A stretch of 41,604 bases of DNA. Origin: Saccoglossus kowalevskii (lineage: Eukaryota > Hemichordata > Enteropneusta > Harrimaniidae). Positions 876 to 35,002 of the stretch are shown here, piece by piece. The notes beneath the pieces are model-generated. The model searched no databases, was not told where the DNA came from, and saw only the letters and a list, made by a program, of their open reading frames with translations. Both the position numbers and the translations under genes were made by a program. The DNA lies in assembly GCF_000003605.2 (NCBI RefSeq), contig NW_003126885.1:3600-45203 (forward strand), in the 5' to 3' direction. Positions within the stretch are counted from its first letter, which is position 1. The number at the start of each line of letters is the position of its first letter.

Positions 876-935
876 CATCCGAGTTATTCAATGATGGGTA
901 CGATTCTCCTAGGTCTGCTTTTACTTGCAAATAAT
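876..935 (-). CDS. Exon 6: 60-bp exon, last one visible
   Basis: The acceptor CTATTTCTAATTTTAG|ATTAT has a good pyrimidine tract, and the donor AACTCGGATG|GTAAGT is strong. The exon starts and ends in phase 1, so it completes an Asn codon with exon 5, encodes YLQVKADLGESYPSLNNSD (residues 743-761) and leaves one G. A length divisible by three with matching phases means it could be skipped without a frameshift. An alternative acceptor, GTAAAAGCAG, lies 25 bases inside but has a poor tract. No following exon in phase 1 was found in 1-875, so the transcript continues to the left of the window. Confidence 0.65.
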
Positions 936-1775
936 CTAAAATTAGAAATAGATCATGTGTGTCAAATTATGGCGGAGTGCATACAATGCATTTCGCCGTT
1001 CAGTAATATGTTTACGTCTCAGACCACTAATAAAGGTCTGAGTTTGCAAGTAGTACTTTGGCCACCCGAGTGAAGCACACAAATGCATAACTTATTTCAC
1101 CCGCCCTATCTATAAGCACCGTTTATGTAGGCACTGTGTTGTTGCAGTACATGTATTTCTTTTATTTGCTTATTGACTGATATTGCTGAATATTTGCTTT
1201 TAATGATATGCTTGGTGCGCGCTTCAACTTTGTGTGGCATATATGTGGCTGATTGTGAACACAGAGGCCCATCGTTTGCTACTAAGACATTTGATGGAAT
1301 AAATGATGCAATATTTATAGTTATTTTAAAAAGATGACACAATGGAATAATTACAAGCGTTTAAGGTTTGCATGCAATCATTCAAACAAGCACAAATTAA
1401 GGACTCCGTACCTGAAAAATATCCAGACGCGAGGCCTTCGAAAAACGAGGAAAACACAAACATTAAATAAGGGTGATTCTATGCTACGTACATAACATTT
1501 GAAGCTAAAAAAACAAAACACACACAACAACAGCCAACCCAAAGTTTGCCCGACCGTGCAGCATCAATTCCGAAACGAAAAACAAGATTGAAACCAATGC
1601 TTTTTTTTTTTAAATGAAGATACTAACTGACAGCCAATCAGCTCATCATTCCATTTTCAGTTGAGGTAGAGTGAATAGAGGAAGACAGTATTAATGACAG
1701 TCAAACATAAAACAAGATACTGTTAACCAGTCATGCTTGCGTGCATTTTATATGCGTGTGAAGGGACCGACTTAC

Positions 1776-1906
1776 TTGCTAACAAATGACTTGTACCGGT
1801 TTCCAAACCGGCGAGCGACACGCCATGAACGACATGCAGATCGCCTGGCGAAATTTGTAATGACGGCAAACTTACAATGTTCGCACTGGGACGCCGCGAT
1901 TCGAGC
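1776..1906 (-). CDS. Exon 5: Leu/Ser-rich 43-codon exon
   Basis: A 131-bp exon. The acceptor is preceded by a T-rich tract and reads TTTTCCCCGCCAG|GCTCG; the donor is AGCAA|GTAAGT. In the frame fixed by exon 4 it completes a glycine codon and then encodes residues 699-741, starting LESRRPSANIVSLPSLQ and passing through VVHGVSLAGLETGTSHLL, before ending in phase 1. RRPS is a plausible basophilic kinase site of the R-R-x-S type, but this is only motif reading. A second frame is also open across the exon but gives a less protein-like sequence. A stronger GTAAGT donor inside the exon (after GAACATT) could give a shorter form. The family is not recognised. Confidence 0.65.
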
Positions 1907-2256
1907 CTGGCGGGGAAAATGACATACTCAATATTAAAAAAACAAAACACGAATATGTATGATATTTTATCAGAAATTAATAATCACGTTATATTTAATA
2001 TGAAAAATTATTTATAGAAAAATAATTCTATTTATGTTGGCTATGATATATATGTCAAGTAATCAAGCAAGGTATTGGACATGTGCCATTCCAGTAGTAT
2101 ATGATTGGTGAATGCATGCAATGTTTTATTTCGAATAATTTAATATCAGTATGCCTCGGTTTGTATTAAGTGGGAACAAATTGAATCGTTGATATATCAG
2201 CAAACTGAATCATGTGTCGGAAAGATTATTGGGGAGACAGTAATTGTGGTACATAC

Positions 2257-2297
2257 CCATATTGAGGACCGTTTTCGGATTCCTCGTCTAATGTATC
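2257..2297 (-). CDS. Exon 4: 41-bp microexon
   Basis: A short exon with acceptor TTGAGTTACAG|GATACA and donor CAATATGG|GTATGT. It encodes DTLDEESENGPQY plus two bases of a glycine codon, so it starts in phase 0 and ends in phase 2. Its phases fit exon 3 (ends 0) and exon 5 (starts 2) exactly, which is the main support, since it is too short to stand alone. It is acidic and carries no domain. Skipping it would shift the frame, so it is probably constitutive. An upstream extension in the same frame (ATG ATT GAG TTA CAG) would be readable if another acceptor were used, but TTACAG is the best one I see. Confidence 0.62.
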
Positions 2298-2534
2298 CTG
2301 TAACTCAATCATAATATCAAATCAATATCCAATTGGCTTTAAGCAGAAAAGAAATCACGTTCGCCTTCTGCTTTCTAAATACTCTCAGTTTGTCTTTATT
2401 AAAATGGACACATATGACATGTATAATTTAATCATCATTTGCCCTACGTCTATTCCCACAACAAATTTGTTGGTTAATTTGGAGAATCACATACGTTCAA
2501 ATTGAAGATCAGTATCAGATAGTTTTCCACCCAC

Positions 2535-2663
2535 CTGAACTTCTAAAGTAGTGCGCAGTGTCTCTGACGTCATAGCTCCACGTCGCCTCCTGAACGCTGA
2601 GGGTGGTGGCCTGAGGTCTTCTTCTTCGTCTGTCTGATTGTCCGACCCTGAGGAATACTTCAC
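2535..2663 (-). CDS. Exon 3: acidic, proline and RRRRGA segment
   Basis: An exact 43-codon exon in phase 0 at both ends. The acceptor is AAAATACAAAATAG|GTG and the donor is GTTCAG|GTGGGT. It encodes residues 642-684. The order of features is striking: a Ser/Gly/Asp start, an acidic run TDEEED, PPPSAF, then RRRRGA (residues 666-671), followed by MTSE. In cAMP-dependent protein kinase type I regulatory subunits, the linker also has an acidic and Pro-rich stretch and then RRRRGA with Ser-Ala-Glu, where the alanine replaces the phosphorylated serine. The rest of this exon does not resemble RI, and no cyclic-nucleotide-binding domain is visible in the window. It could be an independent pseudosubstrate-like motif or simply a basic patch. 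It joins exon 2 and exon 4 without a frame change. Confidence 0.73.
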
Positions 2664-3042
2664 CTATTTTGTATTTTTTAAATAAAAAAACAACAACAAC
2701 ATCAAATGAAATAATCTATTCATTACAGGAATGAGTAGAACAGAAGTAAACCTCCTGGCTAAATGCATCAAATCAATGACGCGCAAAGTGCGTTATTATA
2801 CTGGCGTGCCTCATTACTCCAGCGACTCAGAAACCTAATAGAATATTGAAAGTCAATTTGTAAACATTAAGACGAGTTTTCAAGTTGGTGACTAATAAAA
2901 AGAAGTATCATGTAACTGCTCGTGTCAATTAAGAATCGTCGACTGATTTATCGTCCAGTCGTGAAGTTAGACAAAACTCAACAACAAGAATTCCTAGGAT
3001 GGGCCCAGGAACGCGTCATGGATTTATAACAAGGAAATGTAG

Positions 3043-3202
3043 TTGAAAGCGGGGGAGTCGTCACCTGCGCATGCGTCAGTTGGCCATAACGTGTCATTGT
3101 TTACAAACAAGCGTCTACCAATGAGCCTTTGCGTTTTTAGCGTGTGTTGTTATCGTCGCTTGGGACTCAATTTCCGCGCGTGCGCAGTTAACGACCGTTT
3201 AA
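3043..3202 (+). mobile_element. MITE family A, copy 2, degenerate ends
   Basis: About 160 bp with the same landmarks as the 386-526 copy (GCGCATGCGTCAG, GTGTCATTGTTTAC, GAGCCTTTGCGTTTTTAGC) plus the longer right part GGGACTCAATTTCCGCGCG that copy 1 lacks. The left end has decayed to TTGAAAGCGG and the right end to GACCGTTTAA. In intron 2, close to exon 3. Confidence 0.75.
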
Positions 3203-3549
3203 GTATATAGATCTTTCGTAAGTATGAGCCTCTTATTAGTGATTCAGTGGAATCATATTGGGTAATCCATTTAATTACTCTGGTCAATGTCGATGAACTG
3301 CGGAGCGGATTCGACACATCATACTGTCATATATACTAAGGAGTAATTTTCTCGTTAACTTCTCCTCCTCATACAGTATATATATATTACGGTTGTGTGC
3401 GGAGCGTATCTGACAGAAATCGACATTTGTAATAAACCTCGTGTATTGTGTGTGTAAATTGTAAACTAACATTCACATCAAACATTATGACCTTCAGAAA
3501 CCCCCACTATTTTATGTTGATTACAACGAGCGCGCCTGTAATAGAACAA

Positions 3550-3600
3550 AGACTATAGAGAAGATATATATAGTCTATAGACAGTGACTATATATAGTCT
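3550..3600. repeat. Nested TATA-rich palindromes
   Basis: Contains the perfect 14-bp palindrome GACTATATATAGTC at 3586-3599 and overlapping GACTATAG and TATAGTCTATAGAC arms just before it. Could form alternative cruciforms. No associated gene. Confidence 0.6.
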
Positions 3601-5193
3601 TTGAATAGAAATACCTTGTTATTTTTGTTTGGCCTAACAAGCCCGGAAGCAAGCAAGTCATACGCCATTGAATTTGACGTGCCTATGATGCGCAATAATA
3701 GAGCAAAACAACAAACCATATTTGCAGTGATATCCTGCATTAATGAAATATCTTGGGTACTTAGCTGATTGGGTTCGTAGAAAATACTATTAAAAAAGCA
3801 ATTTCTTAAGTTTGTTACGTACATTATATATGGGAACAATCTATTTCAATCCATTTCTCCACAGTTAAAGCTTTACCCATTGTTTAACAAAATGGCCGTC
3901 GTTTTGGGGCATAGTGTTTTGAAAATGACATCATTGCTTTCATGGATATACAGAACTTAAACTCAATTTATGGAATCTGTCAACTATGAAAAATTAGAAA
4001 CAGTTACAACTGTAATAAAGTATCATAAGCTGAATACTACTGTACGTCAATCGCCCTGTTGTGCCACAAGACAGGTCGCTACAACGAAATATTATGTTAA
4101 TTGCCTAATCATTATGCATAAACAAAACTAAGCTCGGTTTGCTTTTGTCTTTGTGATATCATAATGCCGCGAATGGTTCTATTGATATTAAGAATCAAGT
4201 ATAGACAGACGTATAGGCGGGTAGGTGGACAGACATTCAGACATACGTACACTCACCATATTGTCTACACGATACGCCGCCCTGGTCTGCAACGTATCGG
4301 GAATGGGTACTGTCAACGAACTAGCATCGCTCACTACAGACTCCTGTGAACCTGGAATAGAAATCAACATTATAAACATCCCAATACAGTGCCACCAGTA
4401 CTCGCCTGAGACAAGGAGTGTGTACAATTGTTTTATTCAAATACAACATGACGTCTTTGGTAAATGAACGACACCTATGGATATGTAAATTGACTCATGA
4501 AAAAGCACCATTTTACCTATTTAACATCAATAAAACACAAATTCTCAATTACAGTAGATTTTTCAATTTCAATTAATAAAATAAATGCATAGAAAAATGA
4601 TATCAACTAGTACGACTTCATGGGGAAGGTGATTAACATTCAAAATCACCGCAACCTTTCATCAAAACAAAACTGAGGGCGTGAATCAATCAGGGTGCGA
4701 TCACGACATGCGAAAAAAAGATATTCCATGTCTTTAGATATCCCAAAATCATTCCCATCACAAAACTCGCAATTATACGCAATATTTCCTTTAATTTCTA
4801 CTACGTACGTGTGTTTGGATCCTCATATAACGATACAGACGTAGCGACGCACATCATTGACTTTCAAAGATCAAAAAAAAATGGAATGATCGATTGAAAT
4901 GAAATATTGCTTATAAGTTAATTATTAACAACCAAATCGATGATGCACAAATAAATTACCCTCTTCTCAGACGTATTCATGCGAAAACGCCAAGCTTGGG
5001 GGAAATTGTTTCCGCGTATGGGTACTATGACACATACAATAAATCACCACTCGAAAACCAAGCAGTCCCAGCTTAGATCCAGTAAGACTAGCACACAAAT
5101 ACGTAACCACCATACTGGCCGGGTATTTAGCATTTCCAACGGAAGTTGAATACGTTGGGAACTCAAGAATTGCCGTTCCAAGTGATTCCGAGA

Positions 5194-5326
5194 TTAAAGG
5201 GCGGTAGTCGTCGTGCTACGTATTGTTCGATATGGGATTCATAGCGACGTATACAACGCGTGTAAAATACATTGTTTATTTACATGAAATTCGAACACGC
5301 GCTGCGCGACGACCACCGCGCTTTAA
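5194..5326 (+). mobile_element. MITE family B, copy 1, TTAA flanked
   Basis: A 133-bp element between TTAA sites: TTAA-AGGGCGGTAGTCGTCG at the left and CGACGACCACCGCGCT-TTAA at the right. The interior has GTTCGATATGGGATTCATAG and ACGCGTGTAAAATACATTG. No coding capacity. In intron 2. Confidence 0.75.
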
Positions 5327-5681
5327 ACACAGACACTGAATAGCAGTAAAAACTGACAAAAACTTGGTAAGGATCCCTTCAAGAAACAAGTTCTGCTTAA
5401 TAGCTTCATTCATTATATTTTTTTTTATCTGTAATTAATACAATCACACTATTTCACAGGAGAATGTATGAAATGTGATTTAATTGAAGATTTATTCTTT
5501 ATTAAACATATGATATTTTATTTCTCTCACACATTTCGAGAAAAACACGAGTCAATATAAAAATACAGTGGTTAAATTTGTTGGTTATGGTGGGAAGCTG
5601 CTCCAAGATCGATTATTTGAAAAGTTTCGAAAGTTTAATCATCTATTATACAATTAGAAGGTGTTGACAAAACGCAGAGCC

Positions 5682-5782
5682 CTGGGTGTATTTTAACTCA
5701 CCCAGACTTACTCGGCCCAGGTCAGCTCGGAATCAAAGGGATGGTCTCAACTCTGTGTTCCGGAATTAACTCGAGTTGAGAC
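5682..5782. repeat. Two hairpin-forming inverted repeats
   Basis: CTGGGTG (5682-5688) pairs with CACCCAG (5699-5705) across a 10-base loop. GTCTCAACTC (5744-5753) pairs perfectly with GAGTTGAGAC (5773-5782) across 19 bases. May be the remains of a small inverted-repeat element. Confidence 0.55.
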
Positions 5783-6813
5783 ACGGGTGAAGTATCCATG
5801 GTTGAAACAACGCCATCTAACGGCACCCCCAAAAGGTATCGGATTATCAATCTACGAGATGGCAGACAACGCGCAAGCAGCTCATGAACACAGCAACAAT
5901 ATTTACAGAGCGTTCGAACCCCCCCCCCCCCATTCTTTGGCTCTTGTGACTACTCCATTAGAGATAAGCTTTCACTTTTCACAGAATGTCAGGTTGCTAA
6001 TTGTCAATTCCGGAATTCATAGACAATTCTAGAAAGTTGACGGGAATTATGACTAATCCATTTCCGATACGTTGGCGGAACCCCGCGGTGGGGATTACCC
6101 ACACTTCACTGAGATCAGACTGTTCGCCACTCTCCCTTGCAGAGTCTTCGTGACCTAGGGAGCCACAGAGAGCCCCACTGGACGTTCCCTAGCGACTACC
6201 TAGCTTAGTGATAAAAGACCCATAGTGGCTGACGGAGAATGGCTATTCGCATTAGTGTTAAACAGTATTGCGTCATATTAAAGGGACGAATACTATTTAT
6301 CCGTCGGTTTCACCCATATAATGTCGAAATACTGACATTTAGGCATTCTGTATGATATTTTAGAATCTGAGAAAGTCACAGGTGACTATCGAAAATTCTA
6401 CAAGATAATCATAATATCCCGATGAATTTACAGTGCTTTCAACTGTTCGTATGAACACGAGTAATTTATAGCCGCGTCCATAAAAATAAATAAAGTACAC
6501 CAAATGCCAAGTCAATTCATATTTATTTACCTTTAACCAGGATTAAAATGTGTGGCGAAATTCAAAGCATTATCGCCCACATTTTTCTAAACACGGCGAG
6601 ATTCAACGAATTAAAAGTTCGCCCCTGTGCCCTTAAGTAAAGTACGTCACCCCTTATTCAGTACGAGTGGGCATCGTACATCTGACTCATTCATCCGGGC
6701 TATGTAAATTTTATTACACGTCTGAAGTATGTTTGTTTTGGTGTCGATGTGACTATACGAGTGATATGACCTCGAACACGACATCGATATTAATAATAGC
6801 GTGTCCACCAATC

Positions 6814-7450
6814 CACATTGTTTTAAATGTCCGCCAATCAGCCACTTTGAATCCGAATAAGAATGACGTCTATGTGGAATAAAACACATGGTCGCTGTCG
6901 GTAATCTCGCGTTAGACACAGCACACATAAATAAACTGTGGATATAGTTCCCGTATGTTCAACTTTAGACACAGTTGCACATTGTTTTAAATGTCCGCCA
7001 GTCAGCCACTTTGAATCCGAATAAGAATGACGTCTATGTGGAATAAAATACATGGTCGCTGTCGGTAATCTCGCGTTAGACACAGCACACATAAAGAAAC
7101 TGTGGATATAGTTCCCGTATGTTCAACTTTAGACACAGTTGCACATTGTTTTAAATGTTCGCCAGTTCGCCACTTTTAATCCGAATAAGAATGACGTCTA
7201 TGTGGAATAAAACACATGGTCACTGTCGGCAATCTCGGGTTAGACATAGGGGAATATGGACACCGTTCCAATATGTTCAACTTTAGACACAGTTGCACAT
7301 TGTTTTAAATGTCTGCCAATCAGCCACATTTAATCCGAATAAGAATGACGTCTATGTGGAATAAAACACCTGGTCACTGTCGGTATTCTCGCGTTAGACA
7401 CGGCACACATAGAGGGACTGTGAACACAGTTACCTCACCTTTAATCCAAA
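6814..7450 (+). repeat. Tandem array, about 164-bp unit, 4 copies
   Basis: Units begin with CACATTGTTTTAAATGTCCG at 6814, 6978, 7142 and 7296, so spacing is 164, 164 and 154 bp; the last copy is partial. Each unit contains GAATGACGTCTATGTGGAAT and GCTGTCGGTAATCTCGCG. Small frames in it (for example 6647-6928 minus) repeat with the unit and are not genes. Confidence 0.85.
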
Positions 7451-9283
7451 TAAAAAGGACGTCCATGCACGTGGAATAAAACAAGCCATTCAGTATTGAT
7501 TATACCTACTCACAATTTAAATCGAAGCACGTACACATGCTATTTCTATTTCTTCCAAATTGAAATTTTTTAAAGAAAGCTATGGAGTACGATTTTTTAT
7601 AATCACAGATAATCGTCGGAGCACGTTGTGGCTGACATATTAGCAAGTGTAGGGCGGCAGACTCACACAGATTAACCTATCGTTTACACGCATTCCGTGG
7701 GTTATAGTGGCGACTCGAATTCAGTAAATGATCGTACAAAATTGACAGAGGTCAAAACCACAATAACAGAGATCTATGATCTAACGACTGCTTTGTATTC
7801 TATTTTTATTTTCTATAAATTCCGAGCATACCATCATGAATGGCGAAGACACATACATGGGTATGTTACTATAGTAACGCTAACTGTAGGTATATTTATA
7901 CCTTAGACAATCGAAACACTCACCTCTCCCGAGCAAGTAGAAGTGAAAGCAAATGAGAAGTGATTTCAGCTTTTCTTCTTCTTCTTATTATTTTAATAGA
8001 ACATTCCAGGGATTTTCCAGTTATGGAAAAATTGAAACCATAGTCGAATTAGGGCACATATAGTACAATTTTTTTTTTGCATCCAATTTTGATTTTATTT
8101 TCAACCAGATCCGTTAAATCACAATAAACTACAACCTAATGAATTCAGACTGTAATTTATTTAACCTGATTCGTAGATAGAGGGCGGTTGCGCGGCCATA
8201 TCGATTACCAGCCCGGCTGGCCTAGGCAGCAAATACTTATCTTTTCACGTAAAAACATGTTTAAAAAAAAAAACTGTAAAATAATACTCGCGATTAACAA
8301 ACGTTCACACTCACGGGACTTAGTCGGTAAAAAATGTTTCTAACATGTTTTCACATTATATAGGGACGTTCAATATTCCTATGGGTGGTATTCAATGAAT
8401 ACCGGTACTTGTAATGTGAAAGTAAGCTAAACGTTGACCAGTAATAATACGTTATTGTTATTTCTACACGTCTAATTCGAAATACTTTGATTATTGGCTG
8501 ATTCACACACTAAAGCTTTTGATTACTCTGATGAAACTCTGTATTCTGAGAATAAAATGAGGGCTTCGTTTTATTACAAAGTAATAAAAAAAACTCCAAA
8601 CACAAATGTTAAATTAGCTGTGGTGTACGTTGCCATACTATCTCAAGATGTTTACACAGTATATGCTGGGCAGCGATGCAATAGGGTTATGTATAGACAC
8701 GTTTCCATGGAGATGAGAATCTCAAAATATAACTGCCTTTACGAAGAATGGTGATTTTATTAAAATACGAATAACTCTTAAAAGATGTGCCAGTTTAATT
8801 TCTTACTTTACACACGAGGTATACTTTTCATACCAGTATTATGTAGTGGTGTATACGTACTGATTGCAATGTTGGGTTTCAGGTTTATGCAAAATGATTT
8901 TATATCTTGATAAAAATAATAACAGTAAATGTGATTATTTTGGTACTAATAGTAAACATTTTTTAATTGCCGAAAGACGAATAAAAATGAAGTTAAACAT
9001 ACTAAAATTAAATGTAAAAAGTTGGTATTAGATGTTAGTTGTGAAAACTGTAAATCATTTTGACTGCCACATAGCATGATGCAATTATTTAAACTAAAAT
9101 TGTTATGACCCAAAATCATTACAAATGGAATAACTTTTTAGAATGCCCGATTACCCTAGCTTTTCTAATCATTTTTACTCACTACCTCCGGGCTCCATCC
9201 CATAATATTATTCCATGTGCAATATTTGTTTTCTTTCAGTTTAACCCTCTCAAGTGCCAGCATTTTCCCCGCCAACATTTTCA

Positions 9284-9442
9284 TCAAAGCGGGAGGGTCG
9301 TCACCTATGCACGCGCGGAAATTGAGTCCCAAGCGACGATAAATAACACACGCTAAAAACGCAAAGGCTCATGGGTTGTTTGTAAACAATGACACGCTAT
9401 GGCCATTTGACGCATGCGCAGGTGACGACTCCCCCGCTTTAA
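9284..9442 (-). mobile_element. MITE family A, copy 3, reverse orientation
   Basis: Inverted relative to copies 1 and 2: it begins AAAGCGGGAGGGTCGTCACC and ends GGTGACGACTCCCCCGCTTTAA, with terminal inverted repeats of about 20 bp. Interior landmarks read in reverse (AACAATGACACGCTATGGCC). The left TTAA is eroded to TCAA, the right one is intact. Confidence 0.75.
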
Positions 9443-11496: not shown

Positions 11497-11653
11497 CAGT
11501 GGCGGATCCAGAGGGGGGGCAGGGGGCCATGGCCCCCCAAACGCATGACGATTCATATCATCTGGATTACGCATAGCTTCTCTGCGATTTTCGCTCCGTA
11601 TAGCTTAAGCGAAGCTTGCCCCCCCCCAATACATTTTGCTGGATCCGCCGCTG
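11497..11653 (+). mobile_element. hAT-type MITE with perfect 8-bp target duplication
   Basis: A 157-bp element with inverted ends CAGTGGCGGATCCAG and CTGGATCCGCCGCTG (one mismatch). G-rich and C-rich runs lie just inside each end. It is flanked on both sides by TTGTAGCA (11489-11496 and 11654-11661). An 8-bp target duplication and CA/TG termini are the hallmark of hAT-superfamily insertion. No transposase is encoded, so it is non-autonomous. The clean duplication implies a fairly recent insertion. In intron 2. Confidence 0.85.
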
Positions 11654-11951
11654 TTGTAGCACTAATGAACGTTGATCCACCGAGAGGGTTGATTGATGAA
11701 GTAGGCAACGTGGTCGACGTTCTTTGTCACAAAAGATGTCGTGTACACAGTTAGCTAGCGTAAACGTGATCTACAGCTTTGCCGATACCCGACCCGGACA
11801 AAAAACTAAGTTGTCGAACGTGTTTCCCCTATATCTTGTACCAACGAATAGCTTGGTTTGTGATCGTTTGGATGTGTTCTCTGTTTTGTTTTGCAACATT
11901 AGTTTTTTTCAGGTCCGAATCTCATTCAAGATGTAGTTAGTACATGTATCG

Positions 11952-12298
11952 GTAAATTAGACGCATTTGTTTGCTAAGTTGTGGTCATGTAGTCCATCAG
12001 TGCCCACCTTTGGTACGCAATGGTCGCCCTCATGTAGTAAGTAAATTAGACGCATTTGTTTGCTAGGTGGTTGTGGTCATGTAGTCCATCAGTGCCCACC
12101 TTTTGTACGCAATGGTCGCCCTCATGTAGTAAGTAAATTAGACGCATTTGTTTGCTAGGTGGTTGTGGTCATGTAGTCCATCAGTGCCCACCTTTTGTAC
12201 GTAATGGTCGCCCTCATGTAGTAAGTAAATTAGACGCATTTGTTTGCTAGGTGGTTGTGGTCATGTAGTCCATCAGTGCCCACCTTTTGTACGTAATC
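11952..12298 (+). repeat. Tandem array, about 92-bp unit, 4 copies
   Basis: GTAAATTAGACGCATTTG starts at 11952, 12041, 12133 and 12225. Copies are nearly identical (CATGTAGTCCATCAGTGCCC is in each), and the first is 3 bp shorter, so expansion appears recent. Confidence 0.88.
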
Positions 12299-12555
12299 TT
12301 AATTCGGAGCTACTTGTACGCTTAACACGTTATATTGCGCTTGAAATTCAACTCCACAAGCTGCCGTAGATATCAGCCCGGGGTTAACAGAGAGTTTAAT
12401 GTAAGCAATTATTTAAGTGCACCCAGCCATGGGATAAGCACGGTACAAGCATCTGAATAGCTAGAAGTCCTCTCTCTACTTGAAACAGAACAGATTTTAA
12501 AACTGTAAATAAATCAATTTCGGGGTGTACTTAAATAGTGTTTTCCCCGGTCTTA

Positions 12556-12813
12556 TTAAAGGGTGGTAGTCGTCGCACCACGCATGCGCGAAGTATATGG
12601 GTCTCATATAAACAATAATGGCGACTTTCACTGTTGCGCAGATCAACGAGTACAAACTGGGACATTACCAAGTTTTAATTAAGTAATTTTTAGTTTGATT
12701 GAAAGGTATCGAAGGAGATAATCACGGTGCAAGTCGCGCCCGGATTGTGGGAAAATCAATGTTTATCAACACAAATATCGCACAAGCGCAGCGCGATGAC
12801 CATCGCCCTTTAA
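12556..12813 (+). mobile_element. MITE family B, long subtype, 258 bp
   Basis: TTAA-bounded, with left AGGGTGGTAGTCGTCGCACC and right GCGATGACCATCGCCCT. Unlike the short copies it has a distinct interior with GGAAAATCAATGTTTATC and AACACAAATATCGCACAAG near the right end. The same interior appears in reverse beside the assembly gap at 28779-28888, which defines a subfamily. Confidence 0.72.
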
Positions 12814-15436: not shown

Positions 15437-17612
15437 GGAAACACACAGTATGTCAGTGACACCCACTGTTAACACGAGAACACTCAGTATTAAAATGGCA
15501 CCAACTGTGAACAGAGGAACACCCAGTATGTCAGTGACACCCACTGTTAACATGAGAACACCCAGTATGTCAGTGACACCCACTGTTAACAGGGGAACAC
15601 TCAGTATGTTGGTGATACCCACTGTTAACACGAGGACACTCAGTATGTCAGTGACACCCACTTTTAAAAGAGGAACACTCAGTATGTCAGTGACACCGAC
15701 TGTTAACAGATGAACACTCAGTATATCAGCATGTCAGTGGCATCAACTGCGAACAGAGGAACTGTCAGTGGCACCAACTGTGAACATAGGAACACTCATT
15801 ATGTCAGTGGCACCAACTGTGAACAGAGGAACACTCAGTATGTAAGTGGTACCAACTGTGAACAGAGGAACACTCAGTATGTCACTGACACCAGCTGTGG
15901 ACAGCAGAACAATCAGTATGTCTATGGAACCAACTGTGAACAGAGGAACACCCAGCATGTCAGTTACACCAATTGTGAACAGAGGAACACCCAGTATGTC
16001 AGTTACACCAACTGTGAACAGAGGAACACTCAGTATGTCAGTGACACTGACTGTGGACAGCAGAACAATCAGTATGTCTATGGCACCAACTGTGAACAGA
16101 GGAACACCCAGCATGTCAGTTACACCAACTGTGAACAGAGGAACACCCAGTATGTCAGTGGCATCAACTGTGAACAGAGGAACACTCAGTATGTCAGTGG
16201 GACCCACTGTTAACAGAGGAACACTCAATATGTCAGTGGCATCAACTGTTAACAGAGGAACACTCACTATATCAGTGGCACCAACTGCGAACAGAGGAAC
16301 ACCCAGTATGTCAGTTACACCAACTGTGAACACAGGAACACTCAGTATGTCAGTGGCACCAACTGTGAACAGAGGAACACCCAGTATGTCAGTTACACCA
16401 ACTGTGAACAGAGGAACACCCAGTATGTCAGTTACACCAACTGTGAACAGAGGAACACCCAGTATGTCAGTTACACCAACTGTGAATAGAGGAACACCCA
16501 GTATGTCAGTGGAACCCACTGTTAACAGAGGAACACTCAGTATGTCAGTGGCACCCACTGTTAACATGAGAACACCCAGTATATCAGTGACACCCACTGT
16601 TAACAGGGGAACACTCAGTAAGCCAGTGACACCCACTGTTAACATGAGAACACTCAGTATGTCAGTGGCATCAACTGTGAACAGAGGAACACTCAGTATG
16701 TCAGGGGCACCAACTGTGAACAGAGGCAAACTCAGTATATCAGTGACACTCACTGTTAACAGATGAACACTCAGTATGTCAGTGGCACCAACTGTGAACA
16801 GAGGAACACTCAGTATGTCAGTGACACTGACTGTTAACAGAGGAACATTCAGTATGTCAGTGGCACCAACTGTGAACAGGAGAACACCCAGTATGCCAGT
16901 GACACCCACTGTTAACAGGAGAACACTCAGTATGTCAGTTACACTCACTGTTAACAGAGGAACACCCAGTATGTCAGTGTCACCCACTGTTAACAGAGGA
17001 ACACCCAGTATGTCAGTGTCACCCACTGTTAACAGAGGAACACTCAGTATGTCAGTGACACCGACTGTTTACATGAGAACACGCAGTATGTCAGTGACAC
17101 CCACTGTTAACAGAAGAACACTCAGTATGTCAGTGGCACCAACTGTTAGGAGAGGAACACTCAGTATGTCAGTGACACCGACTGTTAACATGAGAACACT
17201 CAGTATGTCAGTGTCACCGACTGTTTACATGAGAACACGCAGTATGTCAGTGACACCCACTGTTAACATGAGAACACTCAGTATGTTAGTGGCACCAACT
17301 GTTAACAGAGGAACACTCAATATGTCAGTGACACCGACTGTTAACATGAGAACACTCAATATGTCAGTGACACCGACTGTTAACACGAGAACACTCAATA
17401 TGTCAGTGACACCCACTGTTAACACGAGAACACTCAGTATTAAAATGGCACCAACTGTGAACAGAGGAACACCCAGTATGTCAGTGGCACCCACTGTTAA
17501 CATGAGAACACTCAGTATGTCAGTGACACCGACTGTTAACATGAGAACACTCAGTTTTTCAGTTACACCCACTGTTAACAGATGAACACTCAGGATGTCG
17601 GTGTCCCCCACT
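15437..17612 (+). repeat. Minisatellite, 39-bp unit, about 55 copies
   Basis: A 2.2-kb array of a 39-bp unit of the type GGAACACTCAGTATGTCAG followed by TGACACCCACTGTTAACAGA. Because 39 is a multiple of three, long frames stay open on both strands. The plus frame gives a 13-residue repeat like RGTLSMSVTPTVN (306 codons at 15846-16766 and 269 at 16776-17585). The minus frame gives LTVGVTDILSVPL-like repeats (427 codons at 15743-17026). Variants include a GTTTAC unit that creates minus-strand stops and ACAGATGA units that end plus-strand frames. An 8-base deletion near 15765 shifts the frame. It is in intron 2, ending about 260 bp from the exon 2 donor. Best read as non-coding VNTR. Confidence 0.9.
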
Positions 17613-17873: not shown

Positions 17874-19000
17874 CCAGCTGACTGGTGATCCAGGGGGTGA
17901 CGGTGTCACTCTGTCGTCATTTAATTGCGTCTGACTGGGGCGTAAAGGTAAATCCACGCTATTGGCCGACTGGAAACGTGGTCGCGGCATGTGATAATCC
18001 ATTTGTGACTGGCTTCGTTTCAAAAACGGGTCTGAATTTGATGATTTGTTGCTGACCTGAGCAAGGTTTTCTGATACACAAATAGTATGCCGCTGAGATT
18101 TATTTAATTTTACGGGGTGGATGTGTCGGAAGTACATATCCCTGAGTTTGTTATTGTTAGACGAATACTCCGTGAACGTCGGCGAACCACTACTGTTACT
18201 TTCCAAACGTCTATTTCGCGATTGAGGTAACGTCACTTCCGAGTGAAAACAGTCGTCTTCCAAAAGTTCCTCTGATGACTGTGGTCTGACGGCCTGTAGT
18301 CGCTTGATGCTGGGTTTGAAACTTATTGCACTGTCGCGGTTTAATTTCGGTGATGACGTAGACGAACTCGACGATGATCCTCTGAGTTCCCGTGCGTGGT
18401 CCACTGCCATTACACTCCTATTAGCCCGACATTTTTCACACACTCCAGTGAATGGTTCGGTTTGGGTACATTTGCTCCTGACTTGCAGCGTTTCACACTG
18501 AGTGAAGACGTCTCGTTGCCATGGAAAACGGTTTTCACTTGTGTCACCGACGATATCCAGCTTGCCGAAGATGGAACTGCTCTCGTGGTTATGATCGTTC
18601 GTTTTAATCAATTTCCCCTCGTCTGAAAAGACGTTATCTTTAAGCGCCGTCGTCGTGGTGTTCTTGTTGCTCATAACAACGGGATGAGAATTGCCAGCTA
18701 TCATATCCTTCTTGCGCTGACACTTCTGCGTGTTGCAAGGTGAATAGTCGTCTATTTCATTGGCGTCAGTCGGCGAACAACGAACCTCGTCCGAGTCCAA
18801 AACTATTGCACTATCAGCGGATAGTTTCGGTCGTCGCAGTTTATTATTCATGTGCCGTAGATCTAACAGTTTGTTGTTGTCACGTGACATGACTACGCCT
18901 TCTTCAAATTGGTGTAAATCTTGCAAAATGATGGGCGTCCTACTGCGGGGAGCGTTGATACTACATTGCGCGGCACGGTCGTCCCTCTTAATGTTCGAAT
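17874..19000 (-). CDS. Exon 2: large Ser-rich disordered exon with KCTQTE motif
   Basis: This 1,127-bp exon has an acceptor TTTTGTAATTGCAG|AT at 19001 and a donor AGCTGG|GTAAGA at 17873. It is open throughout and encodes residues 267-641. Visible parts: PKLSADSAI at about 323-331 and a second copy PKLNRDSAI at about 483-491; KCTQTE at about 442-447, which fits the [KR]xTQT consensus for dynein light chain LC8; four cysteines near 434, 443, 453 and 456, the last two as CEKC; a Ser run SSSSSSTSS at about 474-482; and many SxxS/SP sites towards the end, closing with TPSPPGSPVSW. This composition is typical of a disordered scaffold or regulatory protein. No catalytic domain is visible and I cannot name it. 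A 91-bp copy of part of this exon sits in intron 1 at 19535-19625. Confidence 0.8.
18456..18473 (-). other. KCTQTE motif, LC8-type docking site candidate
   Basis: Codes for K-C-T-Q-T-E within exon 2. The [KR]xTQT pattern is the classical binding motif for dynein light chain LC8 (DYNLL). It lies in a polar, apparently disordered region, which is where such motifs work. Binding is inferred from the motif only. Confidence 0.4.
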
Positions 19001-25700: not shown

Positions 25701-28700
25701 AGTAAAGATAGTTTTAATAAGGCCTTTTCTTGAATGAGTACCCATTGTACATATGTGTGTCACCGTTTTCACCAAACAAGCACCACAAGTTCATGTTGGT
25801 CCGGACGGATATACTACACTGCTAAATTCGGAGCCTCGTAACAATATGCCTGGGAAAAAAACCAGCAGAAGACAGAAATAGTACACGAATGTTCATGCGC
25901 TGCTATTTACCAATACGTTATGATATGGCCGCCATTTAAAGTTCAAACTCAAAAATAGCGGTTTACGTTACCGTATGTACAAACGAAATATACTCAAATG
26001 ACATAATAATACAACTGTTACATTATTATTATTTTATATGTTCCGTTGCAGTCTCCAGATCATTTTTCTTAGCTTCTCTATTTCCCTGCTAGAAAAATGA
26101 GTGGCAAATATTATCCTGAATGTAAAGAAATGCAAAGTGCGCGGTCACGATTCATCACTCAAAATATATCAGTTATGGGCCACAAAAAGACTTTGACTAA
26201 ATCAAGACAGTAGGGAGGGCCATGGCTGGCGGCATTACGTCAACGTGCCCCGGGCCGGGAGAGTTGTATATCAGCGGGAACTATCATAACGCGATATTCG
26301 TTTGTTTAAGCCAAGAATTAACTATTGAATGTTATAAATTGACAATGGCGATTCAATCTGATGGATTGCTTTTTCTCTGCTATTTCTGTCCGTTATCTAC
26401 CCGGATATATTCGTGATGCTGGGTGTCACGATTCAACTAACTGGTTTAATACAGAGTTATGGGGTCATTGCATCCTCGTTCTCAATGTTATTAAGCCAAT
26501 GCATCCTCGTACCTAATCACGGGTTTCCAGAAGACCGTAATAACGTTGAATGAGTCGACGCTTTCTCCATTGTCGGATTATATTATAAGAGATGAAATGA
26601 AAGTCAAGCGAATGGAAAAACAAAACAAAATACGCTCTTCTTCTTCTTTTAGTCAGTATCCATGGTTATACTTTGTGACAAGCTTGTCGTTAGAGATAGT
26701 ATGCCGTGTGTTATCACATGAGAAGAGGGCAATTACAAATTGATTGTACTAATATCAGATAAGATATTAGCAAGATATAGAAATATATGACCTGGGTGCG
26801 TTAGTGGGGCTGATTTTGTTATTTTTGTATAAAAATGTACGACTGTCTTCGTTGTGGTCCTTGGTGAAAGCCTCGATGAAATCACACAGAATGATCATAT
26901 ACACACGAATACCGAACGCTGTATATAGCTAGTATCCCCCTCGCTTTCTATCAATATGATGAGCTTCAAGCATGCTATATTGTGCCACATTACAAATACG
27001 TGCGTTAACGTATCATCAACAATCAGTATTGAGTATGTACATAGACCCTCTGGTCTATGGTATGTAGCATGTGCATACAGGGCACTGAAAGAGTTGTAAT
27101 CCAGGGATCGAGTGGTCGGTCGGGACTGGGTGACCGGGAACTGACCTGGCAGTGTGTAGTGCGCAGTTTGTAAAAGGTAACAGGTCGTACTTTGAATGCA
27201 TTTATTATTCACTGGTGTTTAATTTCACTGGTTTTACAGATAAGTAAATTTAAATTCACGTGAACACGTAAAATACCAATACAATTGTTTCCCTGGGAAA
27301 TTCGAGAATTTACAATGCAATGTAATTGTGCAAAAAAAATCAAAATAGTGAAATTAAATGGCAGTGAAAATCAATGCTTTTACAGTAATAGGTAGCCTAG
27401 TAGCCTAGTAATTGTCAACATATGTACCGTTGTGTATTTTTACTTGGCTACAGAATTTTGCTATGCAAATCCGACTGCGCTCTGTCTGTACTGTACTCCA
27501 AGGCATGTCAATAACACAGCGTCAGCGCTTTCTGTAATTCGATTAACGTCAACTGCTGTCACTAATTGTTTCAAAATATTATTATTACACAGCACCGAGT
27601 CTGAGCCGAGTGCGCGTTCACAGGTCTATATAGCCTAGAAGGTCCTGAGTTATCACAGTCACTGTGGTCGTCCCGAATGCTGACATTCGGCAACGGTCGA
27701 TACGCATCGTTTCAACTATTTCACGATGTACGATATACATGCGGACTAAACTAGCTTTTTTTGTTATCACATCCAGCTTTTAAATGTCGTTCAATATTCA
27801 CACATGCTCGCATGCAACCCTCTCGACTGAGTCTCGCTGTCATCTCGCGATCGCCCACAAAGAGCGCATTTACTGATGATGACCTTTCGGGCTAATTAAA
27901 TACATGCATCTCGCTATCAAACCAAACCAAATTAGTGAAATTATATCACCCCCAATACTGTTCATTTAAGAGAAACTTGTTGGTGGCTTTTGGGAAAACA
28001 TGTTACATACGTAAAGACGAGTTTCCGATACCTGCATGGTTACCGACACTTCGTGTGATTCGCCGGTATAACAGGGATGATTTTAACACAGTTCTCCGAA
28101 ACACCGGCAAAATACACTTTAGTAGCAACGACCTCGTTGTCGGTGTATATCCAAGTATGTTGGTGGCATGATTCAGTTGAGATTTCCGTGTTCACAGCAC
28201 AGCCTTCAACGGGCCGCAATCAGGATGACTCCGCGTGGCGTTCCCGGTGAAATCGTCAACTGTGCGATACTGTTCAACTGTCTCTTCGTCACAGTATCCA
28301 CTCATACTATAATACACGGGTCACGTGACACGTTGCCCCCTTTTATAATAATTATTCACGTACCGCATACTGTGGCTTAATATAAACATGGTGTTTCAAA
28401 AAGTCTATTTTTCATATTTTCCAAATAATTCTAACCAGAATTTTATTGCCGTGATGATTACGCGAGGTTTACTAACATCCGGTTACAAATGAGATTACGA
28501 TCTTCAAACTGGAAAACATTGATGTTTAAGCAGTGAGTGCGTGTGGGATAAGGGAGTGGGTATCAATCTCAGCACGGTCATTACGAAAATTGGAATCGTG
28601 TCTAAAAGGCATTGTCGTTACATAACCAGGATGACCGAATATGTCACGAGGACTGATTTAGGAAGATTCGAGAAGTAAATAAAAACACGCATCATATAGT

Positions 28701-28778
28701 CGGAAATGTTGAACACAAGAAATGTTCACAAATAAATGTCGGTATAAAGCAAAAACTACACGCGTCCTTCATTGGAAA

Positions 28779-29206
28779 TTAAAGCGCGGTAGTCTCGCGC
28801 TGCCGCATGTGCGACATTTGTGTTGATAAACATTGATTTTCCCACAATTCAATGCCTCTTCAAATGGAAATCACGACATGACGTTTGANNNNNNNNNNNN
28901 NNNNNNNNNNNNNNNNNNNNNNNNNNNNNNNNNNNNNNNNNNNNNNNNNNNNNNNNNNNNNNNNNNNNNNNNNNNNNNNNNNNNNNNNNNNNNNNNNNNN
29001 NNNNNNNNNNNNNNNNNNNNNNNNNNNNNNNNNNNNNNNNNNNNNNNNNNNNNNNNNNNNNNNNNNNNNNNNNNNNNNNNNNNNNNNNNNNNNNNNNNNN
29101 NNNNNNNNNNNNNNNNNNNNNNNNNNNNNNNNNNNNNNNNNNNNNNNNNNNNNNNNNNNNNNNNNNNNNNNNNNNNATGCGCAGCGCGACGACTACCGCG
29201 CTTTAA
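28779..29206 (-). mobile_element. MITE family B, long subtype, interrupted by assembly gap
   Basis: The left end TTAA-AGCGCGGTAGTCTCGCGC and the right end GCGCGACGACTACCGCGCT-TTAA are inverted repeats lying on either side of the N run. The left arm continues with GTGTTGATAAACATTG and TTTTCCCACAATTC, matching the reverse complement of the right side of the 12556-12813 copy. The two arms give 140 known bases. Confidence 0.65.
28889..29176. other. Assembly gap, 288 N
   Basis: Unresolved bases. Open frames crossing the run are artefacts. It falls inside a MITE with inverted ends. Confidence 0.99.
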
Positions 29207-29830
29207 ATTATTAGTACGTGAGTATTTTTTCGGCGGGTGGCATGCTCGGGATTTTGGAATTATAAATAATACGATAATGAACTATTTATTGTAAATCATG
29301 CATGGACTTTTAAGAATTCTCTTGCATGGTATTCTGTGCACGTTTTTATTAGATTCGGATGAGTTATGGTTGTAAACAGATATGAGATTACTGTCACAGT
29401 AAACGTGGGACGAGATTTCATGTAAGCCTGTGTCAGGGACCCCAGAGGTCAGGGACTAACCACCATCGGTTTTTACACGATAATAACAAATAAACAAATT
29501 AATATTAGGCTGGAAAATTCCATATTCATAAATATAAGCCAAAACACGTTTGGTTACGCAGATATAACACCGGTGACATGCCGTCGTAGTGTTTAATCCG
29601 AATAAACTCCAGGCGAACCTGGCGCGAACTTTAAATCACCATTTGATTCCAAATAGATTGAATTGGCCCGGGCTGTATCATGTCTTTCACATACTTTGTA
29701 AGAATACGGTGAATAATAACTTATACAGGTTGTTTTAAAAATGAACAAATTTCTGTCTGTCGTTGTTGCCATTTGAATTAATTTAAACATGGGAAACATA
29801 AAGTCATGAAGTCGCCACTACGATTTTCAG

Positions 29831-29957
29831 TTAAAACGTCGCATACAACAGTCCGTGTTCGATATGGGTCCCATGCAACGCGAATAAAATAAATTGTTTG
29901 TTTATTTGTTTACACGGAATTTGAACGCGCGCTGCGCGACAGCCGTATAGCGTGTTA
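29831..29957 (-). mobile_element. MITE family B, decayed copy
   Basis: Contains GTTCGATATGGGTCCCATGC, GTTTATTTGTTTACACGG and TTGAACGCGCGCTGCGCGAC, all family B landmarks in the order of the 5194-5326 copy. The right inverted end has been lost. Confidence 0.5.
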
Positions 29958-30581
29958 ACAGCGTTGACGCACTCTGCGGTTCACCTGCGTGGCAAACGGC
30001 TGGTTAAACTGCAGAGCGGGCGATATATGCAATCCATCATCTATCGAAGCATTCACAAGACTAAAAACCGCTCAATATCAGTCGTTACAGCAACAAGGAG
30101 TAAATCCAGGTCAAATGATTGCGCGAAGCAGTCAGTGACAATCTGACAACTTCAGCTGACTTTTCTCTGTCTCGCAGGATTTATTTAAAAATCCTGGAAT
30201 TCAAATTGATTACTTATACTGATTAGGAAGGTTGTTATCAGTCTAGCATACTCTGATCAATGAATCCATACCCATTACTTAATTTGATGCAAATATACAT
30301 ACATGATTCTTAATTTCTAACAAACACGTGAGGGGTCAGAAAAGGCGTTTAGTTCACGTTCCTGTTGACGGGGGGGGGGGGTATATCAATCAGGTTCCTA
30401 ATATTGCATCTTCAAGTCGCATATTGGATTAATTGCACCTTAAACCAAAATAACTTAGCGTGTACAATGTTGCCAGGGGTTTAAGAGAGCATTAATAAAG
30501 ACGTGGCCCTGAATATAATTAAACGAATTATTAATACATTTTTAGAAGGCACCATATTTTATAGATATTTGCCTTGACATC

Positions 30582-30734
30582 TTAAAGCGGGAGAGTCGTC
30601 GCCTGCGCATGCGTCAGATGGCCATAGCGTGTCATTGTTTACAAACAAGCGTCTACCCGTGAGCCTTTGGGTTTTTAGCGTGTGTTGTCGGTTGGGACTC
30701 AATTCCCGCGCGTGCGCGTACCCTCCCGCTTTAA
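30582..30734 (+). mobile_element. MITE family A, copy 4, TTAA flanked
   Basis: A 153-bp copy with intact TTAA at both ends, left AGCGGGAGAGTCGTCGCCTG and right GCGTACCCTCCCGCT. Carries the shared interior (GGCCATAGCGTGTCATTG, CAAGCGTCTACCCGTGAGCC). In intron 1. Confidence 0.78.
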
Positions 30735-33700
30735 ATAAACACTGCAAGCATTGGTATAGATAAATCGTTACATTTAATGTGAGGATCGCTTGAATAATAA
30801 CCAATGATGAAACAAGGTAAAGTTAGTCAACTGCGGCTAATTCAAAATACATTAATTAAATGATGATGCCGCCGTTTGCCCTGGGTAGCACGCGCCGCAC
30901 CAAAATAGCTGTGCAGCCCAGTGGACGCGGAGTGTTATTTCAGGTGAATCACACTAAGACCAGCTTAACCTCCGATAACACTGAGTTATCTGAAGATTTG
31001 ATAGATGAATGTTACTTCGGGCCGGGGGTAATTGTTTACTTTATCTGTTAGATGGCCATTCTATAATTAGTCTTCGTATGCTCAGATTGATCCCCGGTGT
31101 TGTAGGATTATCATTTGTATGACGTCATCGGGGTTATATTGAGTCAAATTGATATTTAATGAACTTCCGCGCTCTGCATCCTGTGGCGTTGGCTTTGCCG
31201 GCTTGCTGATTATCTTCAAGGTTTTTTTATAGGGTGGCGTGTGTGTTTTCAGTGGCGTATCCGCTTCACTGAGCATGAACCAAATTTTTATAAACGACCT
31301 TACATCGAGAGAGACTAGTGGCTTATGACTCTTAACGTTCAATATCTCTGGCTAAGTAGTTTTTTGTGCTATTTCAGGTTACTGTGTATAGAAAAGATGG
31401 ATTGTTAAAGTAAATAGCAATGGTCTTACGCAACCACGCATGTACCAAGTGATGCGATTTCATCGCAAACTGAGCTGCCTGATTTTGGCTAGAAATTGTT
31501 ATGAAAGAAATTACAAATCTGCTATCATGATCGAGTCGGAGGATGTGCATCTGAGGTACTGTCCCATTTATACTCTACAGGCCCGCCTTTTCTGGAGATC
31601 GGTACTGACCCACGATGAAGGGCAGTACCATGTATGGGGGATATCAGTATAACAAAATAATTTACGTCTTGTTATTATTGATTCGGCTTCGATCGGTTAC
31701 CTTCGGTGATTCACACACACTTTATTTCTAATTCGGCATTCGACACACCGAAGCAAACACATAGAGATTATGACGTTATTCTAGACCGTTTTCGAACGCT
31801 TTGGGGGCATCGTCCAAATTTTGAGGGCGCCCTAAATGTTTGTACCGAAGACCGACACCCTATCAATCCTCTGGAAATATTTCAGGACCGAGGACGTTAC
31901 ACATAATTAAATTGGCAATGAACTATTATTTTTACCATGTACACTTGTACCTACTGACTCTCACGACCGTACAAAGACGGCCATTAAACATGTTAATTCA
32001 TAGACAAGAAGATGGTTTATATAGACATTCTTTGTACATGGTAATCTGTGGTGCATTCAAAATCCAGAATAATTACGACGCAATTTTGTTAAGCCCTCTC
32101 CTTCAATGACGGCATGATGAGTTAAATTGGATTTTCTGGTGGTTTGAGGTACTCACTGTGTTTGGAAGAATATCTAGTTAGCGTCAATAGCAAGATGACT
32201 GCCACGAGTAGGAAATTTAAATAATTGCACAATCAATTTGTGATTGGTCTAAATTGTTTATCCTTTCGAGAACACCAAGCTCGCACTAAACAAACTCGGC
32301 TAAATGATATGCTGCACGAAGAGTGCAAATCCTGTACATTCTGCGCATGTCCGATTAGAGGGAATATTAAGGAACACTTAAGGAATATTGGTGCTACGCT
32401 AGTTTGCAGAGGGAGATCGCGTGTTAAATGTTAAAGTCATTGTCGAAAAAACACAGCCTCTTTACGGCACTGGCGACAACAAAACGAAAATTACATATAC
32501 TAGTCGGATTCCGATCTAATTGACCTCGTGTATCTCTCCTGCACGAGGCCAATTTGGGACCGATACACACAATAGTGACATTTCAACTGTTGTGATAGTA
32601 TTCTGAGGTAGAAACGCAAAATTAAACCTTTCCCAAAATGAAAATCGAGTGCTATAGTCGATTTCATCGTATTGGGGGGGGGGAATTATCTTTAAATAGT
32701 TTATCGTATTTAGGCTCATGGCCCATTTACTCTGAGCCTGAATAGTTTTAAAAAATAATAGTAAATTCCAATTCCTCTTCAATTTTAAATGCATGAAAAC
32801 AAAAAGATGATACACTATAAATGTTGGGTATTAATCTTGAATCTATTTGCCTCTCTATAAACGACCTGGATTCACATATAATCATGTGTACTAGGTTTAT
32901 CGTAGATAATTTGTTTGCCTGGATCATCTGGGGTTGTAGAAGACCATGTTATCACCTGTCAAACCATGTTCATTCCGTCCGTCGCCAAACTTGTGTGCGC
33001 ATGGTTTACAACGATAACTGAACGATTATGAACTTCAATCACAAATGGTGCAGTGAAAGAATTTAGAAAAAAACACACACGGACAATTGTATTTTCTTTC
33101 AGAACCGGCACCATGAACTTGATAACGGACACTATGACATTTTCATACAGTCTCGCTATACATGTATAAAACAGGTGTAAATGATCAATTGAAAACTCAG
33201 ACGTCAAGCATGGACAGAGAATAAAACATGAATGTGCCTCATTAGGCGAAACCTGGTAATTACTCTGGCCGTCTTATGCATTCAATAGAGAACCATCATG
33301 ATAAAACACACACTGCACTGTCCGCTCGCTTTATTAAAAGACTTTGCGAAGTACCAAATTATACTAGTGGACAGACAGTATGCACGGCTACTGTACGGTG
33401 CTAGATCATTAACATGGAGTGCATGTATGGCTCAATACAGAACTTTTAAAGATTAGACTAGTCGGTACAATAGAGCCTTATTCTGAAGCGTCATTCCCCG
33501 GTGACCACCAATAATTCCGTCGAATTACGGTGTATGCATGTCGTTACAATAATCCCAATTCCGGTTCATTCAAGCGTGAAATCGGCGTGAAACGGCTTAA
33601 AACACTAGAATATCCGTCATTGAAACCACTGTCATAATTATACGAAGCATGATTTGAAATAAATGGTCATAAATTAAAAACATCAGAAATCGTGGTATTA

Positions 33701-34206
33701 AAAAAAAATACCCAGCGAAGGTGAAGAATGGTCACAGCGATAAAGTTGATTCACCTCAGCGATATGTCATCGATATTATATTGCGTATGTACGAGTACGG
33801 CGTTGCTAGATGTAAATGTGTGCCACCTGTTTGGACGACACATTATCAATTATTCTGACAACTGTGCATTAGTGTGGAATAAAATAACCACGCGAGTCCC
33901 ACAATAAATGTGCGGAAGCGTATGTGCTCTATACATTATAATAACCCTTGTAAATTGATCTGACACCCCTTTGGTATAAACCTTAATACAATTATACAGG
34001 AAACTCGTGTGATCAGCATTTCTGATTTCACGATACGCGTACCAGGGTCTTACATCGCCTACACGGCCGCACTTGTCTGGCAAATGCGTGAGGGAAGTCC
34101 ATTTCAACATTTAAATTTTCATACCGCGCGGGAAGTGACATACAGGTACGTTCAGTATCGCTTGTTCCCGGTCCTGACGATGTATCATCTAAACTTTAGT
34201 ACATAC

Positions 34207-35002
34207 CTTTGGTAACGTCAAAATCCTTCGAAGATATTGTATTGGAATGTGTAATGTCATTATCAGTTGTCGGTTGTATGTTGATCACACGACGTTGAAT
34301 AACGGTATTCAGTGGTGTAGCCGGGATTATATCACTGTTATCATCATTGAGAAGTGACGGTAATGTGCAAGTATATTCCAGCTGTTGCTCAGACAGCCAA
34401 TGATCGGTATCTGTCGGCTGAACCTTGACCTGGAGGGTCTCGCCACGCTCATATTCTTTTCGTTCGGATAATATCGATGTTTTATCCGATGGTGCGGCTA
34501 TGTTCGCGTTATAATACAGACCATGCTTGTGGATTAGTTCCCGCTGCGGTATTTCGGAGTCCCGGTTGTAAATTGAAGCCAAATGAGTGTCTAAAGTCTC
34601 GTAGCTCGATATATCTGCTGGAAAATTAGTTAGATCCGATTCCAACTCTATAAATTCCCCTCCAGGTAATTTAATAATTTCGACATTACCATAAAAGTGA
34701 TTCTCCTCGGGTCCATCACGGTTCAGACGTTTCCGACTCAAATGTTTCTTCTCCTCACATGGGGTTGTTATCGTTGTTTTTCTCCCTCTTGAAGGTGCTT
34801 CTTTCCTGTACGTCCGTGTTTCCAATCCAGACACATTTTGGTTGATGTCAACTTCATTCAGCGTCATCCCCTTGCCATGTCCAGGGGCTGATCGTTGTCT
34901 ATTACCGGGTCGACGTCGGGGTCGGGACTGGTCGCTATTACATCCCCCATTAGCAGCACAAAGGTCGTTAATAATAAACTGTAGTTGGTTTTCCAGGTCC
35001 AT
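34207..35002 (-). CDS. Exon 1 (coding part): N-terminus of an unnamed disordered protein
   Basis: This is the first coding exon, 265 full codons plus one base. The start ATG at 35002 sits in a good Kozak context (AAAAAATGG, with A at -3 and G at +4) and begins MDLENQLQFIINDL, a short amphipathic stretch. A basic segment with PRRRPGNRQR follows at residues 28-37, and there is another Lys/Arg-rich patch near residues 85-94. The remainder is acidic and polar, with no membrane segment, signal peptide or known domain. The exon ends at AAAG|GTATGT, a strong donor, and leaves phase 1. That matches exon 2, which opens with two bases; the split codon makes GAT (Asp, residue 266). An untranslated leader and further 5' exons upstream are possible. 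The open frame and the splice site are seen; membership in the larger gene is inferred from phase and strand. Confidence 0.75.

What the first reader, a model, noticed from the sequence alone, without database searches (positions are those of the whole stretch)
876..35002. A six-exon gene hidden in the window, joined by consistent splice phases
Only two exons are long enough to stand out as open frames. The four short ones (129, 41, 131 and 60 bp) were found from splice sites, and every junction agrees in phase: 1-1, 0-0, 0-0, 2-2, 1-1. Chance agreement of all five is unlikely. The product (at least 761 residues) is disordered and matches no family I can name, so it may be lineage-specific or a poorly conserved scaffold.
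Basis: partly seen in the sequence, partly recalled or inferred. Interest (0 to 1): 0.7.

Follow-up and report, generated by a model that had tools for sequence, protein, structure and literature searches.

The report
Spliced animal-like gene, eight exons
This stretch very probably holds the front part of an ordinary spliced animal-like gene for a long floppy protein of unknown family; two of its exons had been missed, and one exon carries a short motif that looks like a built-in blocker of the signalling enzyme protein kinase A.

Summary
All five claimed introns are GT...AG and the join is open for 761 codons. The two long frames exceed every simulated maximum. The best phase-consistent exon chain scores 32.5 and adds an exon at 9813-9705; with a movable pyrimidine tract it also adds 4351-4257. 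So eight coding exons and 829 codons probably lie here, and the gene runs off the window at a strong donor (875). Exons 4 and 6 are the least sure. Pfam, PDB and two collection scans found no family or relative; no animal genomes could be searched. Exon 3 encodes RRRRGAMTSE, 7 of 10 identical to the PKA RI-alpha inhibitory site (0 of 4000 residue shuffles, 8 of 4000 block shuffles). A PKA-binding scaffold is a testable guess, not shown. No transcript evidence was available.

The parts
34207..35002 (-). exon 1, first coding exon: ATG at 35002 with A at -3 and G at +4, in-frame TAA starting six bases upstream; ends in phase 1, donor AAG|GTATGT
17874..19000 (-). exon 2, 1127 bp, phase 1 in, 0 out; acceptor CCTTTTGTAATTGCAG, donor TGG|GTAAGA
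Another AG three bases upstream (exon start 9816) keeps the frame
Codon score not special (8.8% of equally long open control windows reach it)
Alternative acceptor giving 2647-2535 if 4351-4257 is skipped
2562..2591 (-). codons for RRRRGAMTSE, like the inhibitory (pseudosubstrate) site of PKA RI-alpha
   Evidence: (translation); fits RRxA-hydrophobic of PMC5059767

Best explanation
The minus strand carries the 5' part of one protein-coding gene of an animal-like eukaryote, with eight coding exons in the window (35002-34207, 19000-17874, 9813-9705, 4351-4257, 2663-2535, 2297-2257, 1906-1776, 935-876) and more beyond its left end. The first 829 codons specify a long, polar, serine- and arginine-rich, mostly unfolded region. 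Inferred mechanism: a scaffold that works through short linear motifs. The best candidate motif is an RI-like PKA pseudosubstrate (RRRRGAMTSE), which would sit in the catalytic cleft of PKA and hold or inhibit the catalytic subunit. The exon structure is well supported; disorder is moderately supported; the PKA step is a guess, about one in five. The confidence below is for the gene structure.
For: GT...AG at every junction and one open frame over the eight-exon join. Long frames beyond 180 simulations. Best chain 32.45 against a maximum of 15.1 in 300 simulations, and at most 4.8 in 15 runs on five control stretches. In four settings with codon scoring, 41.7-43.3 and 24.1-25.6 against simulated maxima of 15.3 and 7.1, 0 of 100 each (the same 100 sequences throughout). 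Candidate exons scoring at least 16.3 are expected 0.053 times per region, at least 19 0.013 times (300 simulations). Codon preferences of exons 1 and 2 predict each other (z 3.4 to 4.6). No open control window codes as well as exon 3 (0 of 5349). Disorder: no Pfam family up to E = 10 for the 829 residues, charge-hydropathy index slightly negative overall, exon 1 model pLDDT 34 from one sequence (weak). Motif.
Against: No transcript or homologue. Splice matrices are general values from recall, not trained on this organism. Exons 4 and 6 drop out when only open frames are scored (4 of 4 settings); at the higher exon cost exon 6 drops even with codon scoring. With a fixed-position pyrimidine tract, 4351-4257 is left out in favour of acceptor 2647, and the seven-exon join is also open. 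Codon scores of exons 5, 6 and 4351-4257 are ordinary (reached by 10.8, 6.6 and 8.8% of open control windows). Other unexplained candidates exist in the region (6154-6103, 12.6; 1435-1412, 11.6; 0.76 of at least 11.4 expected). The cross codon scores of exons 1 and 2 are themselves negative at the smaller pseudocount and stand out only against the null. The motif was noticed after the fact; phmmer with 31 residues around it finds no PKA regulatory chain up to E = 10; R-x-x-S/T sites are not enriched (10 against 11.9 expected).
Confidence: 0.78

Rival explanations
1. The gene is: six exons here, with 17874 spliced straight to 2663.
For: Frame is open and phases agree. Exons 9813-9705 and 4351-4257 could be alternative exons: with both skipped the frame is kept (204 bp, a multiple of three).
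Against: Two high-scoring exons with fitting phases lie inside the supposed intron. The best chain includes both in 8 of 8 settings, and the first.
Confidence: 0.1
2. Seven coding exons: 9813-9705 joins directly to an acceptor at 2647, and 4351-4257 is a pseudo-exon or a cassette exon.
For: Best chain when the pyrimidine tract is scored at a fixed place (32.45); the join is open.
Against: The advantage goes when the tract may lie further upstream (acceptor 2663 scores 4.0, 2647 scores 0.9). Two other AGs lie between the T-rich tract and 2647; usually the first AG after the branch point is used (general knowledge; of the papers listed I read none). 4351-4257 would then be an unexplained 16.3-bit exon (0.053 expected).
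Confidence: 0.15
3. Exons 1 and 2 are real, but some of the downstream short exons are chance: for example exons 4 and 6 are wrong and 1504-1412 follows exon 5 in another frame.
For: Open-frame-only scoring chooses 1906-1776 then 1504-1412 and leaves out exons 4 and 6 (4 of 4 such settings). Exon 5 is open in two frames.
Against: With codon scoring exon 4 is kept in 4 of 4 settings and exon 6 in 2 of 4; exon 4 beats 99.5% of equally long open control windows.
Confidence: 0.15
4. Exons 1 and 2 belong to two different genes, or the locus is a decaying pseudogene.
For: They are 15.2 kb apart with a run of N (28889-29176) between them; their phases would match by chance one time in three.
Against: No in-frame stop in 829 joined codons; codon preferences of the two predict each other.
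Confidence: 0.07

Closest known systems
PKA type I-alpha regulatory subunit (PRKAR1A), inhibitory site
   Same: RRRRGAISAE against RRRRGAMTSE: 7 of 10 identical, the other three (I/M, S/T, A/S) similar; RI-alpha letters checked in PDB 5jr7_B
   Different: The sequence after the site is unlike RI; no dimerization or cAMP-binding domain in the part seen (Pfam 0 families)
ARHGAP36, PKA antagonist
   Same: Pseudosubstrate (RRGAV there) inside an arginine-rich N-terminal region; passages of PMC5059767 seen
   Different: No RhoGAP domain in the part seen; whether later exons encode one is unknown. A resemblance to ARHGAP6 around an RRRGAM there is recalled only
PDE7A1 and other C-subunit-binding proteins (C-KAPs)
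   Same: N-terminal pseudosubstrate sequences that block the PKA substrate site; passages of PMC6143667 seen
   Different: No phosphodiesterase domain in the part seen; one site, not two

Membership tests
spliced eukaryote protein-coding gene | GT...AG introns and one open frame over the joined exons | tested here: met
spliced eukaryote protein-coding gene | exon chain better than chance | tested here: met
spliced eukaryote protein-coding gene | transcript crossing the junctions | not testable with these tools
   no reads on hand; organism unknown
PKA pseudosubstrate inhibitors (RI, PKI, ARHGAP36, PDE7A1) | R-R-x-A/G-hydrophobic motif | tested here: met
   RRGAM; a match to RRxA-hydrophobic occurs in 4% of shuffles, RRRRGA-hydrophobic in 0 of 5000
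PKA pseudosubstrate inhibitors (RI, PKI, ARHGAP36, PDE7A1) | binds and inhibits the PKA catalytic subunit | not testable with these tools
   needs an assay
PKA RI regulatory subunit | dimerization and cAMP-binding domains | tested here: inconclusive
   absent from the 829 codons; later exons lie outside the window
ARHGAP6/36 | RhoGAP domain | tested here: inconclusive
   absent from the 829 codons; later exons lie outside the window

The most novel reading that the evidence does not exclude
The gene encodes a new, unrelated PKA catalytic-subunit binder: a long disordered scaffold carrying an RI-like pseudosubstrate that evolved outside the RI, PKI, ARHGAP36 and PDE7A families, so that it would capture or inhibit PKA independently of cAMP.
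Probability: 0.17. Interest if true: 0.5.

Novelty: new member of a known kind. Interest (0 to 1): 0.27.

Why it matters
As a gene structure it is ordinary: a multi-exon animal-like gene with long introns. It is useful as an example: exons of 41 to 131 bp were found by reading alone, and a scored search recovers most or all of them plus two that were missed. The PKA-like motif would matter if conserved, because it would add a cAMP-independent PKA binder to those such as PKI, PDE7A1 and ARHGAP36 (passages of PMC6143667 and PMC5059767).

Tried and rejected
Family search of the joined protein, six-exon and eight-exon, and of its 3' part: Pfam up to E = 10 gives none, but for one meaningless hit at 0.27 on the 120-residue part. 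PDB sequences up to E = 10: none for the 761-residue join, for its last 120 residues, for 31 residues round the motif, or for 86 residues spanning the two added exons; the whole 829-residue join was not sent. Bacterial and archaeal genome contigs (six-exon join) and viral contigs (last 120 residues): no relative. I expect next to no animal DNA there, so this is not evidence of lineage restriction; the two added exons were not used in those scans. Rfam and tRNA scans: none. Pfam on 20 of the 33 frames (the frames of the two long exons and 11 others were not among the 20): no family at its curated cut-off, some weaker hits, mostly on minisatellite frames. Recalled family names for the protein were considered and dropped for want of a match. 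That it is an ARHGAP6 or RI homologue was dropped because the sequence after the motif differs (for ARHGAP6 by recall only). Enrichment of R-x-x-S/T sites: not found. The structure model of exon 1 from one sequence was too poor to search with. Papers holding RRRRGAM, RRRGAMS or RRRGAMT: 0 in the library; a search for RRRRGAI was swamped by its second term.
Full report
Check of the observation. The claimed junctions are exon edges; the introns between them all begin GT and end AG, and the six exons join to 2284 nt, 761 codons without a stop, in phases 1, 0, 0, 2, 1. The first exon starts at an ATG with A at -3 and G at +4 and an in-frame TAA starting six bases upstream. The sixth ends at ATG|GTAAGT, and no convincing next exon follows in the last 875 bases (the five acceptors that score above 0 reach at most 2.3 bits and each frame meets a stop), so the gene probably continues outside the window.

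Is it more than chance? The two long frames (410 and 269 aa, stop to stop) exceed the longest frame of 180 simulated windows (60 each of Markov order 2, 3 and 5; maximum 240 aa). Other frames as long (441, 306 and 272 aa) lie in a 39-bp minisatellite whose period is a multiple of three. Codon preferences of exon 1 predict exon 2 and the reverse, z 3.4 to 4.6 against background codons; the raw cross scores are negative (-13.4 and -11.5) at the smaller pseudocount and small and positive (4.4 and 12.6) at the larger, because the training sets are small.

That is weak, because sites can be picked to agree. I scored internal exon candidates (acceptor, donor, codon preference trained on exons 1 and 2) and searched for the best phase-consistent chain downstream of exon 2, tandem repeats masked, at a cost of 9 bits per exon. 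Five control stretches, three start phases each (15 runs), gave at most 4.8; one run had no allowed chain.

Candidates this good (16.3) are expected 0.053 times in a simulated region. The first scoring left it out because the acceptor of 2663 has its T-rich tract some 20 bases upstream and scored -8. When the tract may lie further upstream, the best chain with codon scoring is 9813-9705, 4351-4257, 2663-2535, 2297-2257, 1906-1776, 935-876 (43.3, or 41.7 with a penalty for intervening AG; 0 of 100 simulations, maximum 15.3); at a cost of 12 per exon it loses only 935-876 (25.6 or 24.1; maximum 7.1). I made this change after seeing the first result, so the second test is not wholly independent; the simulations were scored in the same way. 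Scoring by open frame alone keeps both new exons, 2663-2535 and 1906-1776 but leaves out exons 4 and 6 and takes 1504-1412 instead (27.0-28.5 or 12.0-13.5; simulated maximum 19.3 or 6.4; 0 of 100). My order of trust is: exons 1, 2, then 9813-9705, 2663-2535, 4351-4257, 1906-1776, then 2297-2257 and 935-876.

Taken one by one against open control windows of the same length, codon scores are as high in 0 of 5349 for exon 3, 0.5% for exon 4, 1.6% for 9813-9705, 6.6% for exon 6, 8.8% for 4351-4257 and 10.8% for exon 5. The last three therefore rest mainly on their splice sites and phases.

The eight exons join to 2488 nt, 829 codons plus one base, without a stop. Skipping both new exons keeps the frame (204 bp), so they could be alternative; the seven-exon join with acceptor 2647 is open too.

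What the product is. Pfam gives nothing for the 829 residues up to E = 10; the PDB nothing for the parts sent. The product is rich in S, L, D, R and N, lies slightly on the disordered side of the charge-hydropathy line overall and in 12 of the 13 blocks of 60 residues printed (residues 781-829 were not printed), and exon 1 alone models at mean pLDDT 34 (one sequence, so weak), with a possible short helix at residues 3-17. R-x-x-S/T sites are not enriched.

One motif stands out. Exon 3, with the highest total codon score of the short exons, encodes RRRRGAMTSE at 2591-2562. PKA RI-alpha has RRRRGAISAE at its inhibitory site (letters confirmed in PDB 5jr7_B). The match scores 38 of 47 in BLOSUM62; 0 of 4000 residue shuffles and 8 of 4000 shuffles of five-residue blocks reach it, and the next best ten-mer in the six frames of the window scores 30. 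It fits the R-R-x-A/G-hydrophobic rule given for ARHGAP36, RI and PKI (passages of PMC5059767), and PDE7A1 is another protein with N-terminal pseudosubstrates (passages of PMC6143667). The comparison was chosen after seeing the motif, so the numbers flatter it, and a 31-residue phmmer search did not find RI. I hold it as the best functional lead at about one in five.

What was not possible. No eukaryote genomes, proteomes or reads were on hand; the window's own genome could not be searched. Species, homologues and expression are unknown; 'animal-like' is an inference from intron sizes and the style of the protein.

Noticed in passing
15440-17603: A 39-bp minisatellite of about 55 copies starts 270 bases downstream of exon 2, inside the intron, and reads open on both strands (441 aa minus; 306 and 272 aa plus, one stop apart). 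In the plus frame TLSMSVTPTVNRG changes between copies lean to silent ones (ratio 0.60; the minus open frame 0.99; 54 units); not tested for significance.
   Followed up: partly
40291-41604: A 46-bp minisatellite of about 29 copies, with a 366-bp higher-order period, runs to the right end of the window, perhaps where an assembly broke.
   Followed up: no
28889-29176: Run of 288 N inside intron 1, a scaffold gap or a masked stretch.
   Followed up: no
6814-7422 and 11952-12297: Tandem repeats of 164/318 bp and of 92 bp (97% matches) in the introns.
   Followed up: no
1412-1504 (minus): Alternative exon candidate preferred over exons 4 and 6 when only open frames are scored.
   Followed up: partly
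6103-6154 (minus): A further exon candidate scoring 12.6 that the best chains do not use; about what chance gives.
   Followed up: no
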